From a virus, in IMG/VR virus record IMGVR_UViG_3300042894_000637, positions 1 to 21,189 of that record: a stretch of DNA of 21,189 nucleotides. One strand, given 5' to 3'. The translations under genes and the position numbers were made by a program. Under the pieces are notes generated by a model that did not search any database, was not told where the DNA came from, and saw only the letters and a program-made list of their open reading frames with translations. Below are positions 3,355 through 14,248 of this stretch, one piece after another. How positions within the stretch are numbered: the first letter of the stretch is position 1; the number at the start of each line of letters is the position of its first letter.

Positions 3355-3428
3355 GTCCTTGTATCTCAATTGGATAGAGGCATCGGTTTCTACCCGATAG
3401 GTTACTGGTTCGAGTCCAGTCAGGGACG
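3355..3428 (+). tRNA. tRNA-Arg(UCU)
   Basis: All arms of a class I tRNA are present: acceptor GTCCTTG/CAGGGAC (one G-U), D arm TCTC/GAGG with GG in the loop, anticodon arm ATCGG-TTTCTAC-CCGAT with anticodon UCU (reads AGA), variable AGGTT, and T arm ACTGG-TTCGAGT-CCAGT. The discriminator is G and CCA is not encoded. AGA is a codon phages with A/T-rich genes often supplement. Confidence 0.93.
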
Positions 3429-3429
3429 C

Positions 3430-3485
3430 TTTGGTAGGTGCATATACAATAGGCTTTGACCCTATCATGCTATGTATCCTACCTA
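3430..3485 (+). ncRNA. Rod-shaped tRNA-like RNA with Gln(UUG)-type anticodon loop, no D or T arms
   Basis: GGTAGG (3433-3438) pairs with CCTACC (3478-3483). TGCATA (3439-3444) pairs with TATGTA (3471-3476), with one bulged T. After a small internal loop, ATAGG-CTTTGAC-CCTAT (3449-3465) forms a five-base-pair stem and seven-base loop exactly like an anticodon arm, with U33, UUG at 34-36 and A37. It lies directly between two tRNAs and fills the spacer. There is no room for D and T arms. It may be an armless tRNA-Gln-like molecule, a decaying tRNA, an anticodon-loop decoy or a processing spacer. Confidence 0.55.
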
Positions 3486-3486
3486 T

Positions 3487-3559
3487 GGCACGGTAGACCA
3501 ATGGCAGAGTCTACAGACTTAAAATCTGTGTAGTGTGGGTTCGACTCCCACCCGTGCTA
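3487..3559 (+). tRNA. tRNA with UAA (Leu) anticodon, class I fold
   Basis: The acceptor is GGCACGG/CCGTGCT (first pair G-U), the anticodon arm ACAGA-CTTAAAA-TCTGT gives anticodon UAA (reads UUA), and the T arm GTGGG-TTCGACT-CCCAC is perfect. The D stem is weak (GAC/GTC plus a C-A mismatch) with GG in the loop. The variable region is only five bases (GTAGT), whereas bacterial tRNA-Leu normally has a long variable arm. The discriminator is A and CCA is absent. Amino acid identity is therefore less certain than the anticodon. Confidence 0.85.
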
Positions 3560-3564
3560 CTATA

Positions 3565-3636
3565 GGGATTGTAGCTCAATGGTAGAGCAGTCGGCTTTTA
3601 ACCGATTGGTTAAGAGTTCAAGTCTCTTCTGTCCCA
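3565..3636 (+). tRNA. tRNA-Lys(UUU)
   Basis: The acceptor GGGATTG/CTGTCCC has one U-U mismatch (6-67) and one G-U pair. The D arm GCTC-AATGGTA-GAGC is standard, the anticodon arm GTCGG-CTTTTAA-CCGAT gives UUU, the variable is TGGTT, and the T arm is AAGAG-TTCAAGT-CTCTT. The discriminator is A with no encoded CCA. tRNA-Lys(UUU) is the classic target of PrrC-type anticodon nucleases, so a phage copy can also serve to restore cleaved host tRNA (known biology, not shown here). Confidence 0.92.
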
Positions 3637-3654
3637 CTAAGAAAGGATACTATC

Positions 3655-5281: not shown

Positions 5282-7753
5282 ATGTCTAAACTGTGGGATT
5301 CATTATCTAAAGAAGAACAAGATAAAAGAACTGCACTACAAGTTATCTCTGAGGAAGATATGCTTTGTCTGTCGGAACATAAATACTGGGATGCATACAA
5401 TGCTAACCCTGATGAGGGTATCCCTGAGCAAACATTGATTGACGCATGTGTCATCCATCTTACACCCTTCTACCAGCAATGGATAGATACGGTATCAGAG
5501 AATAGGAAGACACCTGATTGGGCATTCCCTTTGTTTGCTGTTGGTGCTGCTAAGATGGCAGACATTACTATTAGATCACTGATTCTCGAATGGTTTAACT
5601 CTGCTTTCTGGGAGCGTAAGTATGAGAACGATCTGTTCCCATTGCCTACTGCTCAACACATAGCACATGTTATATCTGAGATGGTAGTGGAGATTGTAGC
5701 CTATCAACAGGCTAAGAAACAATTCCGTGAGGATTGGCTCAAGCAATCCCACTACCAGAAGAAGTGGACTACTAAGCGATGCAAGGCGTTTGCCTATAAG
5801 ATGGGTACTCTTAATAAGAAAACCTTCTCAAGGAAACAACGAGAAGACTTTGGTCATCACATGCTACGCATAGCGGAGATGTCTGAGGTCATTAACTTAA
5901 AGAACATTCGTAAGCATACAGGCAAGCGATGGAGTGAGCGTGTTGTAGTTACCTTTACTGATGACATATTGAGTGAACTTAATAAGCGTCATCAGGATGT
6001 GATTGCTACCGCTGCCCTGCTGTATCGACCAATGATTATCCCACCAATTAAACATACTCTAAGTAGTAGTGGTGGGAATCTACTACCCCATATCCGTAAG
6101 CCTGTAGTACAGAAGTTTAAGGATGTGATGTGGGATGAGAAGGTACACCAGAATGGTAGCCTTCCATCAGAGATAGTAGTCACTGGTCTTAATGCTATGA
6201 TGCATACCGAGTGGTCAATCAATGAGCGAGTGCTAGAGATAATGACTGCACTCTTTAAGAACAACACACGAGATGCTAACCTTCCCGTGTATGACTTCTC
6301 AGCCTTTGACTTTGCTGATCCCTATCCTAAGGATGGGACTAAAGAAGAGAAGGCTAAGTGGTGTCAACTCAAAGAAGAAACATATAGCAATTGGTATAAG
6401 GAAGAACGATCACGAGGTCGTATGCTTGTCCGGATTAAACTGGCGCAATCATTAATCCCCCTGAAGTTCTTCTATCATATCTATACCTGTGACTTCCGTG
6501 GTCGTGCTAATGCAGCATGTGATCTACTTAGTCCACAGTCAAGTGACTTTGATCGTGGTCTTATTCAGTTTGCTCAGCCAAGGAAACAAACATCTATTGG
6601 TTTGTATTGGCTCAAGGTTCATGTCGCTAATCTATTCGATCAGGATAAGATAACCTTTGACCAACGAGTTAAGTGGGTCGATGATAACATGGACATGCTT
6701 AAGAGAATCAATACTGATCCCTATGCTACCCGCTCTGAGTGGATATCACATAAGAAGAAAAAGAATCCAAGCTTCCAGCGTATCGCTGCTATCTTTGATC
6801 TGTGTCGTACTGATGGGTTAACTCAAGTGCCTGTGCAAATGGATGGTTCATGTAACGGTGTTCAGCATTGGGCTGCACTTATGCGTGACCCTTATCTTGC
6901 CAAGAAGGTTAACCTCATACACACTAACAAGCCCGAAGACCTGTATCAGTATGTTGCTGATGTGATGACATCTAATATGGTGTCAGTACAGGATGCAGAT
7001 ACTAACAATGGAAAATGGGCGAAAAAATTTATAGAGTATTGGGAGGGTGACATTGACCGCTCTGTTTGTAAGAGAGCAGTAATGACTGATCCCTATGGTG
7101 TTACCTTCTATGGTATTCGCAGGTACTGTAAGACTGAGGGTCACCTTGATTGGGTTGGTAAGGATGAGATTGCTGGTGCTGTTGTCGAGTTAGCTACCTT
7201 CATTGATGCTGCCCTCAAGGGTACATTGGTCGAGGCTAACAAGGGCAAGGCATGGCTCAAGGTGGTGGCTGATATGGCTAGTGAACTAGGTAAGAATGTT
7301 GAGTGGACTACCCCGTGTGGGTTTAAAGTAGTACACCAATACTATGAGATACTAACTAGGCGATCAGTCGCTAAGCTATTCGATATGAAAGAGTTACACT
7401 TTGGCTCACCCGATAAGGAAACAATTGATGGTGGCTCAGTTAATCTAGCCATCTCCCCTAACTATATTCACTCACTTGATGCAAGTCATATGTGGTGTAC
7501 CATATATAGAATGGTGGGTGCTGGTATTGAACAGTTCAGTATGATCCATGATTCATATGGTTGTCCTGCACCGGATGTTAATCTAATGCGTATGTTTACT
7601 AATGAAGAGTTCTGTGCTATGCATACGACCAATCTATTAGATGACATGCGGATCGAAGTATCAAAAGCATTGAAGATTACAGTACCTGATGCACCACCTA
7701 TTGGTTCATTAAACATTAAGGATGTTTTAGATGCGGAGTATTTCTTCCAATGA
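5282..7753 (+). CDS. T7-type single-subunit DNA-directed RNA polymerase, 823 aa
   Basis: It transcribes phage genes from phage-specific promoters. Motif A is VQMDGSCNGVQHW with D521 (T7 D537). Motif B is KRAVMTDPYG with K597 and Y605 (T7 K631 and Y639, same spacing). Motif C is MIHDSYG with D757 (T7 D812). Upstream, TCDFRGRANA matches the T7 DWRGR region. The promoter-specificity loop (about residues 684-725) is as long as in T7 but unlike it, so its promoters should differ from T7's. The C-terminus EYFFQ corresponds to the T7 DFAFA foot. T7 RNAP is 883 aa; the shortfall appears to be mainly in the N-terminal region. AAGGAGA precedes the ATG, and the stop overlaps the next start (ATGA). Confidence 0.97.
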   Translation: MSKLWDSLSKEEQDKRTALQVISEEDMLCLSEHKYWDAYNANPDEGIPEQTLIDACVIHLTPFYQQWIDTVSENRKTPDWAFPLFAVGAAKMADITIRSLILEWFNSAFWERKYENDLFPLPTAQHIAHVISEMVVEIVAYQQAKKQFREDWLKQSHYQKKWTTKRCKAFAYKMGTLNKKTFSRKQREDFGHHMLRIAEMSEVINLKNIRKHTGKRWSERVVVTFTDDILSELNKRHQDVIATAALLYRPMIIPPIKHTLSSSGGNLLPHIRKPVVQKFKDVMWDEKVHQNGSLPSEIVVTGLNAMMHTEWSINERVLEIMTALFKNNTRDANLPVYDFSAFDFADPYPKDGTKEEKAKWCQLKEETYSNWYKEERSRGRMLVRIKLAQSLIPLKFFYHIYTCDFRGRANAACDLLSPQSSDFDRGLIQFAQPRKQTSIGLYWLKVHVANLFDQDKITFDQRVKWVDDNMDMLKRINTDPYATRSEWISHKKKKNPSFQRIAAIFDLCRTDGLTQVPVQMDGSCNGVQHWAALMRDPYLAKKVNLIHTNKPEDLYQYVADVMTSNMVSVQDADTNNGKWAKKFIEYWEGDIDRSVCKRAVMTDPYGVTFYGIRRYCKTEGHLDWVGKDEIAGAVVELATFIDAALKGTLVEANKGKAWLKVVADMASELGKNVEWTTPCGFKVVHQYYEILTRRSVAKLFDMKELHFGSPDKETIDGGSVNLAISPNYIHSLDASHMWCTIYRMVGAGIEQFSMIHDSYGCPAPDVNLMRMFTNEEFCAMHTTNLLDDMRIEVSKALKITVPDAPPIGSLNIKDVLDAEYFFQ

Positions 7754-10644: not shown

Positions 10645-10669
10645 CGTTGACTTTATTGTCACCACCATA

Positions 10670-10703
10670 GGAAGGGAGGGGGAGAAATCCCCCTTCCTTT
10701 TTT
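10670..10703 (+). terminator. Strong intrinsic terminator
   Basis: The stem GGAAGGGAGGGGG (10670-10682) pairs with CCCCCTTCCTT (10689-10699 and beyond), with a G-U pair in the middle and more at the base, around the loop AGAAAT. The 3' arm runs directly into T6 (10698-10703). Five consecutive G-C pairs at the loop end make it very stable. It separates the SSB-RusA unit from thyX. Confidence 0.88.
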
Positions 10704-10735
10704 CTAAGTAAAACACTTATCGGAGAAACAAAAGT

Positions 10736-12543: not shown

Positions 12544-14248
12544 GTGTCCACGCTGTGTACAGAATGGTGCAGATCGTAGTGGTGACAACCTTGCAGTCTA
12601 TGATGATCATGTGTATTGTTTTAAATGCAAGTATTACCGCTCTTCTAAAGGAACAGAGATGACAGATGAACTTACTACAACAACCCCTAAAGAATTTAAA
12701 GTGCTCACTGGTTCTTACATTGATCTTGAGGATCGCGGCGTTACGGAAAAGACTTGCCGCATGTATGGCTATCAGGTAGCCAAGATTAATGGCAAGGAAG
12801 TACACATTGCTAACTACTATCAAAGTGGTGAGCTATTAGGACAACACCTTCGCGGTCCTAACAAACAGTTTGCTTGGCGTGGTAGTGCCAAAGGTTTAGA
12901 ACTCTTTGGTCAGAACCTATGGAAGGCAGGAGGCAAGCGGCTTATCATTACTGAGGGTGAGATTGATTGTATGACAGTCAACCAAGTACTCGGTGGTACA
13001 TGGGCTGTCGTGTCTATCCCCAATGGTGCTACCTCTGCAGCCAAGTCTATCAAAGAGAATCTTGAGTTCATTAACTCATACGCTGAAGTTGTCCTATGCT
13101 TTGATATGGATGAGGCAGGACAGAAAGCTACTATGGAAGTTGCTGATCTACTTCCTCCGGGTAAGTGCAAGATTGCTAAGCTTCCGTACAAGGATGCTAG
13201 TGAGTGCTACATGAATGCTCAGACCAAGCAATTGGTATCAGCACTATGGGAAGCACAGCAGTATTCTCCTGATGAGATCATGCACATCTCTAAAGTTATC
13301 ACAGACTCACAGTCTATGAACCATGCTCGTGTCTATCCTTTCCCTTACGATGGTCTATCAGAGTTCCTGATTGGTCAGCGTAGTGGAGAGATTACACTAT
13401 GGGCATCCGGTACTGGGTCTGGTAAGTCTACTATACTTCGTGAGCTTATGATGCATCACTTAGTAGAGGGTCGTAGTGTTGGGTGTATCATGCTTGAGGA
13501 ATCTCCGCAGGAAACTATGGATGATATGATCAGCTTGATACTTAACAAACCAGTCCGTGCTATTAGAGCAGGACGAATGATGAATGAATTGCGTACCATG
13601 CTTGGCAAGAAACAAATCAACATGGCTATGGTTGATGATCTTACTGATGAGGAATACGCAGCAGCTAAGGCACAACTGTGTGGCACAAACTTCTATGTGT
13701 ATGACCACTTAGGTAACAGTGCAATGGCTAATCTGCTGGCTCGTATGGAGTTCATGGCAACCTCCCTCAAGGTGGATGTCATTGTGCTTGACCATATCAC
13801 CGCCGCTGCTGCAGGACTTATGAGTATGCAGACTAAAGATGTCGAGGGTGGTAACTCAGAGCGTATCATTATTGATACACTCATGAAGGAACTCCGTGCT
13901 ATTGCTGTGCGTACAGGTGTGCATGTAGACATCGTATCACAACTAAAGAAGAGTGACAAGGCATACGAAGAGGGTGACCGTATTACCCTGCAAGATCTGC
14001 GTGGCTCAGGTGCATTGGCATCTGTACCTAACACAGTCATTGCTTTGGAGAGAGATCGACAGAACACAGACGAGAAGATTGCTAACACTACACTAGTGCG
14101 TGTACTCAAGAACCGTCTGACTGGTCGAGCAGGTATTGCAAGTACATTATATTATGACCATGTGTCAGGCAGACTAGAAGAAATTGGATTCGCTATTGCT
14201 GAGGATGGCTCAGTAGTGTTTGAACCCGAACAACAACAGGAGTTCTAA
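12518..14248 (+). CDS. T7 gp4-like DNA primase-helicase, 576 aa
   Basis: It unwinds the fork and makes RNA primers. The zinc motif is C10-x2-C13 ... C34-x2-C37 (T7 C17, C20, C36, C39). The TOPRIM domain has LIITEGEIDCMTV and VVLCFDMDEAGQKA. The helicase has Walker A ASGTGSGKST (K303), Walker B VDVIVLDH, the SQLKKSD sensor region and LRGSGAL. Total length matches T7 gp4 (566 aa). The C-terminus ends in acidic/Gln-rich PEQQQEF with a final aromatic, as T7 gp4 uses to bind its polymerase. The zinc site at residue 10 fixes the start near 12518. It overlaps the preceding gene and joins the polymerase through TAATG. Confidence 0.96.
   Translation: MSLFQSKTECPRCVQNGADRSGDNLAVYDDHVYCFKCKYYRSSKGTEMTDELTTTTPKEFKVLTGSYIDLEDRGVTEKTCRMYGYQVAKINGKEVHIANYYQSGELLGQHLRGPNKQFAWRGSAKGLELFGQNLWKAGGKRLIITEGEIDCMTVNQVLGGTWAVVSIPNGATSAAKSIKENLEFINSYAEVVLCFDMDEAGQKATMEVADLLPPGKCKIAKLPYKDASECYMNAQTKQLVSALWEAQQYSPDEIMHISKVITDSQSMNHARVYPFPYDGLSEFLIGQRSGEITLWASGTGSGKSTILRELMMHHLVEGRSVGCIMLEESPQETMDDMISLILNKPVRAIRAGRMMNELRTMLGKKQINMAMVDDLTDEEYAAAKAQLCGTNFYVYDHLGNSAMANLLARMEFMATSLKVDVIVLDHITAAAAGLMSMQTKDVEGGNSERIIIDTLMKELRAIAVRTGVHVDIVSQLKKSDKAYEEGDRITLQDLRGSGALASVPNTVIALERDRQNTDEKIANTTLVRVLKNRLTGRAGIASTLYYDHVSGRLEEIGFAIAEDGSVVFEPEQQQEF

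What the first reader, a model, noticed from the sequence alone, without database searches (positions are those of the whole stretch)
3430..3485. Armless, rod-shaped tRNA-like RNA with a Gln(UUG) anticodon loop
Between two good tRNAs lies a 54-base element with an acceptor-like GGTAGG/CCTACC stem, a perfect seven-base anticodon-type loop (CTTTGAC) and no D or T arms. The flanking segments pair to make a near-continuous rod of 17 base pairs. Overall size and plan resemble armless mitochondrial tRNAs, which would be very unusual in a phage. Hypotheses: functional mini-tRNA-Gln, anticodon-loop decoy for host anticodon nucleases, or processing spacer.
Basis: partly seen in the sequence, partly recalled or inferred. 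Interest (0 to 1): 0.78.

Follow-up and report, generated by a model that had tools for sequence, protein, structure and literature searches.

The report
Conserved RNA hairpin among phage tRNAs
Between the tRNA genes of an uncultured phage lies a small rod-shaped RNA hairpin that its relatives keep through matched mutations; it looks like a bare tRNA anticodon arm but is very unlikely to work as a tRNA, and is more likely a processing signal or an anticodon mimic.

Summary
The hairpin is real. At 3433-3483, between tRNA-Arg and tRNA-Leu, 17 pairs form a rod: a 12-pair lower helix, a 4/5-nt internal loop (TACA/CATGC), a 5-pair upper helix and the loop CTTTGAC. Alone it would not be remarkable. 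Relatives decide it: 17 other IMG/VR contigs carry a clear copy and 2 an eroded one, each within 60 nt upstream of tRNA-Leu. Over 6 distinct cores 95.5% of pair cells pair, 8 of 11 pairs change on both sides, 0 of 500 shuffles reach this, and sliding the partners destroys it. Unpaired bases are conserved beyond near-neutral codon sites. No Rfam match; no convincing copy in 12 outgroup records.

It is probably not a tRNA-Gln. Two sister sequences read UUC and UUU instead of UUG, one without U33; no acceptor sequence is kept; the phage records show no CCA-adding enzyme or EF-Tu domain; E. coli EF-Tu and CCA enzyme fail on armless tRNAs (PMC12221289, PMC7730189, passages).

Best reading (0.42): a cis-acting processing or protection hairpin of the tRNA transcript. 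Main rival (0.27): an anticodon-stem-loop mimic or decoy. Expression is untested.

The parts
3355..3428 (+). tRNA-Arg(UCU), upstream neighbour
   Evidence: ARAGORN (3355-3429), RF00005 57.7 bits
3433..3444 (+). 5' strand of the lower helix (GGTAGG + TGCATA)
   Evidence: fold; helix positions 3439-3444 covary
3445..3448 (+). TACA, 4-nt side of the internal loop; identical in all 6 distinct cores
   Evidence: alignment
3449..3453 (+). 5' strand of the 5-pair upper (anticodon-like) helix
3454..3460 (+). 7-nt apical loop CTTTGAC (would-be anticodon TTG at 3456-3458)
   Evidence: identical in L022 and L023 types, altered in L087, L071, L075, L021
3461..3465 (+). 3' strand of the upper helix
3466..3470 (+). 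CATGC, 5-nt side of the internal loop (CAAGG in the other 5 distinct cores)
   Evidence: alignment
3471..3483 (+). 3' strand of the lower helix (TATGTA, bulged T3477, CCTACC)
   Evidence: L003 and L004 have C to T here, giving G-U
3487..3559 (+). tRNA-Leu(UAA), 3 nt downstream of the rod; downstream neighbour in the relatives
   Evidence: ARAGORN (3487-3560), RF00005 57 bits; spacing
3565..3636 (+). tRNA-Lys(UUU)
   Evidence: ARAGORN (3565-3637), RF00005 70.8 bits

Best explanation
A structured RNA element in the polycistronic tRNA transcript of one phage clade. Shown: a lower helix of about 8-12 pairs, a conserved 4/5-nt asymmetric internal loop (UACA/CAAGG type), a short upper helix and a CUUU-bearing apical loop, kept by selection upstream of tRNA-Leu. 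Inferred: it acts in cis. The internal loop and apical loop are bound or cut by a host or phage factor during maturation of the early transcript, so that the tRNA-Leu/tRNA-Lys part is separated from, and protected against decay of, the part upstream, as RNase III hairpins with internal loops do between genes of phage T7. The nuclease or binding protein is not identified, and transcription itself is inferred.
For: Covariation: 6 distinct cores, 11 pairs, 95.5% of 66 cells paired, 8 of 11 pairs changed on both sides, 0 of 500 shuffles as high, slid partners fall to 24-46%; with L003 and the eroded L021 added, 94.3% of 87 cells. Position: the core ends 7-10 nt before tRNA-Leu in the window, L003, L022, L023 and L087, and 57 nt before it in L071 and L075; in L022/L027 a gene sits between tRNA-Arg and the rod, but the rod stays with tRNA-Leu. 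Internal-loop bases are the most constant part: TACA in 6 of 6 and CAAGG in 5 of 6 cores. T7 R1.1, a real RNase III site, also has a 4/5-nt asymmetric internal loop (PMC6121014, passage). Unpaired bases 14 of 16 identical window against L022, P 0.0004 by a binomial at the 4-fold-site identity of 0.44.
Against: Three T7 intergenic regions, whose names R1, R1.1 and R1.3 I recall (the record lists no RNase III sites there), fold with upper stems of 9-13 pairs and loops of 3-4 nt, not 5 pairs and 7 nt, and nothing in the RNase III model that I know of asks for a conserved apical loop. T7 has several such sites (recalled); here there is one copy of this motif per record. tRNA-Leu genes of other phages lack the rod, so it is not needed for tRNA-Leu maturation as such. 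The L071 copy does not fold into the modelled upper helix (mean pair probability 0.63, minimum 0.0), and the L071, L075 and L021 regions are not clearly more stable than shuffles (z -1.14, -1.71, 0.39). No expression or cleavage data.
Confidence: 0.42

Rival explanations
1. Anticodon-stem-loop mimic acting in trans. RNase P cleavage at tRNA-Leu and 3' processing of tRNA-Arg free a stable rod that displays a tRNA-Gln-like (or Glu/Lys-like) anticodon arm and soaks up an anticodon nuclease or another anticodon-binding enzyme of the host.
For: 5-pair/7-nt cap in the window, L003, L022 and L023 types and in L021; CU at loop positions 1-2 in all but L075; UU at positions 3-4 in all. Loop identical to a tRNA-Gln. 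Loop 7 of 7 identical window against L022 and L023 where 4-fold sites are only 0.44-0.45 identical (P 0.003-0.004). For PrrC the anticodon stem-loop is the predominant specificity element (PMC3014915, passage); Cas13a cuts tRNAs with U-rich anticodons (PMC11042736, passages); AriB cuts in the anticodon stem (PMC12409363, passages).
Against: Loop altered in L071 and L075; for L075 it is not conserved beyond neutral (P 0.24-0.54 in 4 comparisons); closing pair lost in L087, L071 and L075; U37 in L021. The same PrrC passage says that a stable stem inhibits that nuclease. One copy per record, so it would need high expression. No RNA ligase of PF09414 in 11 records (rings in 6 of 14 controls; the PF09511 search, rang in no control and says nothing). 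The host and its nucleases are unknown.
Confidence: 0.27
2. Another regulatory RNA: a trans-acting sRNA, a cis antiterminator or a protein operator whose partner is not the tRNA machinery.
For: It lies upstream of the phage RNA polymerase gene (5282-7753) in a region with many short open frames; the constant parts are the internal loop and CUUU. The loops recall part of boxA.
Against: The gamma-proteobacterial boxA consensus GYTCTTTAANA (PMC5725501, passage) is met by 0 of 6 cores. No GTCAAAG (complement of the loop) on the + strand of the window. Not among the terminator-like sites.
Confidence: 0.18
3. Functional armless tRNA-Gln(UUG), as in nematode mitochondria.
For: Overall plan, loop, and a phage tRNA set for A-ending codons (Ile-UAU, Arg-UCU, Leu-UAA, Lys-UUU). 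A distant relative, L116, carries an ordinary tRNA-Gln(UUG) beside Leu and Lys. Mitochondrial-mode ARAGORN calls Gln in 2 of 6 rods against 1 of 200 shuffles, but the calls run into neighbouring tRNA genes (both in the window, tRNA-Leu in L022) and shuffles lack the palindrome, so the control is lenient.
Against: Anticodon not kept (L071, L075); acceptor-like sequence not kept; no RF00005 match at E up to 10; E. coli EF-Tu shows no interaction with an armless tRNA (PMC12221289, passages) and the E. coli CCA enzyme is inactive on hairpin-like tRNAs (PMC7730189, passage); PF01743 and PF00009 in 0 of 11 phage records. CAA is an ordinary codon here, 102 of 195 Gln codons in 27 frames that I chose.
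Confidence: 0.05
4. Decaying relic of a former tRNA-Gln, or a chance hairpin without function.
For: The L021/L026 copy is eroded; rods of this shape occur by chance in 21 kb.
Against: Compensatory changes across strong divergence are not expected of a relic.
Confidence: 0.05

Closest known systems
T7 intercistronic RNase III processing hairpins (R1.1)
   Same: Irregular hairpin between genes of a phage with a single-subunit RNA polymerase; asymmetric 4/5-nt internal loop
   Different: Upper helix 5 pairs against 9-13 in the three T7 regions folded; constant cap in several lineages; cleavage untested
Armless mitochondrial tRNAs of nematodes (Romanomermis) and mites
   Same: Two helices joined by short connectors, 5-pair stem and 7-nt anticodon-type loop, about 50 nt
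   Different: Longer variable lower helix, no conserved acceptor, anticodon not conserved, no adapted partner enzymes found
Phage tRNAs that resist or replace tRNAs cut by host nucleases (for example T5 tRNAs against PARIS)
   Same: Phage tRNA cluster; the nuclease cuts in the anticodon arm
   Different: Those are tRNAs; this is a bare arm on a rod, and no nuclease is known here
Phage T4 stable RNAs C and D in its tRNA cluster (recalled; no paper on them found)
   Same: Non-tRNA RNA lying among phage tRNAs
   Different: Longer, as recalled; not compared here

Membership tests
tRNA (RF00005) | Match to the tRNA covariance model | tested here: not met
   No match at E up to 10 for 3425-3490; ARAGORN bacterial mode 0 of 6 rods
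tRNA (RF00005) | Conserved anticodon with U33 and purine 37 | tested here: not met
   L071 UUC, L075 UUU with C33, L021 U37
Armless tRNA | Acceptor and anticodon helices joined by connectors, 5-pair/7-nt arm | tested here: inconclusive
   Plan matches in the window, L003, L022 and L023 types; upper helix is 4 pairs or bulged in L087, L071, L075
Armless tRNA | Adapted CCA-adding enzyme and EF-Tu | tested here: not met
   PF01743 and PF00009 in 0 of 11 phage records, some partial (controls ring in 10 and 14 of 14); host enzymes unknown
Armless tRNA | CCA end and aminoacylation | not testable with these tools
   Needs RNA from infected cells
T7-type RNase III site | Asymmetric 4/5 internal loop in an irregular hairpin | tested here: met
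   TACA/CATGC here, TACA/CAAGG in relatives; R1.1 described as 4/5
T7-type RNase III site | Long upper stem (9-13 pairs in three T7 regions) | tested here: not met
   5 pairs here; T7 regions folded
T7-type RNase III site | Cleavage by RNase III | not testable with these tools
   Needs in vitro assay
Intrinsic terminator | GC-rich hairpin followed by a T run | tested here: not met
   Not among the 5 sites; downstream is TATGGCACGG
Integrase att site in a tRNA anticodon loop | Tyrosine integrase in the phage | tested here: not met
   PF00589 in 0 of 11 records, some partial; 14 of 14 controls ring
boxA | GYTCTTTAANA | tested here: not met
   0 of 6 cores by reading; consensus from PMC5725501 (passage)

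The most novel reading that the evidence does not exclude
A phage-encoded, rod-borne anticodon-stem-loop mimic: a minimal RNA released from the tRNA operon by tRNA-processing enzymes, showing the host a tRNA-Gln-type arm (Glu- or Lys-type in one subclade) as a decoy for an anticodon nuclease or other anticodon-reading enzyme, with the loop changing as its target changes while the scaffold stays fixed.
Probability: 0.25. Interest if true: 0.82.

Novelty: new variant of a known kind. Interest (0 to 1): 0.5.

Why it matters
Phage tRNA clusters are usually annotated only for tRNAs. Here an unannotated RNA element between them is under clear structural selection and has no Rfam match. If it is a processing signal, it shows how these phages mature their tRNA transcripts. 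If it is an anticodon mimic, it would be a new, very small kind of counter-defence against tRNA-cutting immunity, and directly testable.

Tried and rejected
Attachment site for an integrase: rejected, no tyrosine integrase in 11 records, some partial. Intrinsic terminator: no T run. Known RNA family: none at E up to 10 for the window rod; the hits listed in L025 fall on the tRNAs or elsewhere. Host-derived copy: a pattern for the L022/L023/L087 types over 257 Gb of genomes gave 27 matches; 26 have at most 3 of 5 inner pairs, and the one with 5 (L239) pairs in only 4 of 8 outer positions, so none is a rod; that pattern cannot find the window, L071 or L075 types. Viral pattern scans: of 30 stretches 14 are rods on contigs already known, and the other 16 have at most 4 inner pairs; of 20 stretches 6 were known and 14 have at most 4 inner pairs. 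Annotated phages: no match to the window rod; 3 short matches (18-22 nt), in annotated genes, for the L022 rod. Other tRNA-Leu-pattern loci: 25 printed, some duplicates and one with only 13 bases upstream; no rod recognised by eye. Outgroups: model R1 hit 9 of 21 records clearly (G000-G008); G012 only at E 0.7, taken as chance; in 80 sources only the 6 types used to build it were hit, not L021. Further relatives by the tRNA-Lys pattern: 17 contigs, none new. Codon usage does not single out CAA. A first script for odd tRNA-like genes printed nothing and was loosened. Seven short upstream frames show no similarity to each other; an eighth was read in a wrong frame. Literature: searched open-access PMC only; judged by titles and abstract starts, none of the papers listed describes such an element; most subscription journals are not covered. 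Seven papers were seen in passages only.

Rows dropped: L021/L026 and L003 were left out of alignment A4; the count with L021 and L003 is. L071 (bulged) and L021 were left out of the position-wise test. The relatives used (L022, L023, L071, L075, L087, L021) came in by protein similarity, not by the motif.

Full report
What is there. The window is a 21,189-base virus record with a T7/N4-type RNA polymerase, primase-helicase, DNA polymerase and ribonucleotide reductase. Upstream of the polymerase gene lie tRNA-Ile(UAU), tRNA-Arg(UCU), tRNA-Leu(UAA) and tRNA-Lys(UUU). The bases between Arg and Leu hold the reported rod at 3433-3483: GGTAGG+TGCATA / TATGTA+t+CCTACC, TACA / CATGC, ATAGG / CCTAT, loop CTTTGAC.

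Chance. Stability does not single it out: 216 of 7043 overlapping 60-nt windows of the + strand, its own included, fold as well or better, and 21 of 30 shuffled windows contain a comparable rod somewhere. Its fold z-score is -3.07 alone and -1.04 with flanks. The case therefore rests on relatives.

Relatives. Protein searches with neighbouring genes and the RNA polymerase fetched IMG/VR contigs of the same clade. Nine contigs carry the window type (two of them, L003 and L004, with one change in the lower helix, G-C to G-U), three the L023 type, two the L022 type, and one each the L087, L071 and L075 types: 17 contigs besides the window. Two more (L021, L026) carry an eroded copy with loop CTTTGTC and a different 3' linker; model R1 does not find it in L021. 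Each copy lies upstream of tRNA-Leu, within 60 nt. In L022/L027 a protein gene separates it from tRNA-Arg; in L071/L075 another hairpin lies between it and tRNA-Leu.

Covariation. Over six distinct cores (window, L022, L023, L087, L071, L075), 63 of 66 cells pair; the three that do not are the closing pair of the upper helix (A-C in L087, L071, L075). Eight of 11 pairs show changes on both sides; none of 500 shuffles reaches any of the five measures, and sliding the 3' partner by 1-3 columns lowers pairing to 24-46%. Adding L003 and the eroded L021 gives 94.3% of 87 cells and 8 of 11 pairs, with 0 to 12 of 500 shuffles as high depending on the measure. Related sequences inflate the shuffle comparison; the slide control keeps relatedness. 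The polymerase tree shows four groups (window+L003; L021; L071+L075; L022+L023+L087) whose order is not resolved, and identity at four-fold codon sites between the groups is only 0.43-0.52.

What is kept. Unpaired bases are more constant than paired ones: window against L022, 14 of 16 unpaired identical against 9 of 22 paired; binomial P 0.0004 at the four-fold-site identity, 0.003 for the loop alone. Over all 10 comparisons of that call the unpaired-base P runs from 0.00004 to 0.049; the comparisons are not independent. The loop alone is weaker: P 0.003 to 0.04 for window-L022, window-L023, window-L087 and L022-L023, 0.09 for L022-L087, 0.37 for the close pair L023-L087, and 0.24-0.54 for the four comparisons with L075, that is, not conserved beyond neutral there. 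TACA is in all six cores, CAAGG in five; the loop is CTTTGAC in three, CTTTGAA, CTTTCAA and CCTTTAA in the others. So the internal loop is the steadiest part and CTTT the steadiest part of the cap. Folding bears the structure out well for window, L022, L023, L087 and L075 (mean pair probability 0.97-1.0) but not for the upper helix of L071 (0.63, minimum 0.0).

Distribution. Whole-record searches with R1 give one copy in each of nine records of the clade, some partial, and none that is convincing in 12 outgroup records, some partial too, nor in the other loci among 80 sources. The sister phages L107 and L108 have no rod and no tRNA-Leu in their Lys-Ile-Arg cluster; the L108 record carries a long-form tRNA-Leu elsewhere with no rod before it. 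L109 has a short tRNA-Leu without the rod.

Is it a tRNA? Against it: the would-be anticodon becomes UUC or UUU in the sisters L071/L075, U33 is lost in L075 and purine 37 in L021; lower-helix ends share no acceptor sequence; no tRNA model matches. Armless tRNAs need adapted enzymes: E. coli EF-Tu shows no interaction with one (PMC12221289, passages) and the E. coli CCA enzyme is completely inactive on them (PMC7730189, passage). None of 11 phage records (9 of the clade, 2 outgroup, some partial) has a CCA-enzyme or EF-Tu domain.

How it probably works. My leading reading is a cis element: a hairpin with a recognised internal loop, tied to the start of tRNA-Leu, that is cut or bound while the early transcript is matured. 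T7 R1.1 is the nearest model (4/5 internal loop; PMC6121014, passage), but the T7 regions I folded have longer upper stems and their loops are not known to me to matter (recalled). What this leaves unexplained is the constant CTTTGAC cap in three of the types, and for that the mimic reading is better: for the anticodon nuclease PrrC the anticodon arm is the main specificity element, though the same passage says that a stable stem inhibits it (PMC3014915, passage). L071 and L075 differ from each other mainly in the cap while their scaffold is nearly the same, which could be retargeting or decay; two sequences cannot tell. Structural selection is shown; transcription, processing and partner are inferred.

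Verdict. A real, clade-specific structured RNA with no Rfam match, not an armless tRNA on present evidence. Probability split: cis processing or protection 0.42, anticodon mimic 0.27, other regulation 0.18, armless tRNA 0.05, relic or chance 0.05.

Noticed in passing
L107 from about 3946, L108 4784-4852, L109 2220-2291, L135 12329-12397, L148 about 13007-13077: Outgroup phages carry a tRNA-like gene with normal-looking acceptor, D and T arms but a shortened anticodon arm with a conserved ACAATACC/ACAATGCC stretch and no clear U33; ARAGORN misses it in four and calls Ile-AAT in L109. Possibly a tRNA without a usable anticodon.
   Followed up: partly
window 3487-3559: tRNA-Leu(UAA) without the long variable arm usual for Leu; similar tRNA-Leu genes (UAA or CAA) are matched in other phages, while some polymerase relatives of about 50% identity and the sister record G009 have the long form.
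   Followed up: no
L021 about 1258-1334: Where other clade members have tRNA-Arg(UCU), L021 has an odd tRNA-like sequence with a long insert between anticodon and T arms that ARAGORN does not call; no tRNA-Lys is called after tRNA-Leu, and the rod is eroded there.
   Followed up: no
IMGVR_UViG_3300046028_001578 (L007, L013): The rod and tRNAs lie at one end of this 64,485-base contig and the gene normally downstream of them at the other end, as expected of a complete, circularly permuted genome of about 64 kb.
   Followed up: no
window 10669-10704: Strong GC-rich hairpin followed by a run of T, a likely intrinsic terminator.
   Followed up: no
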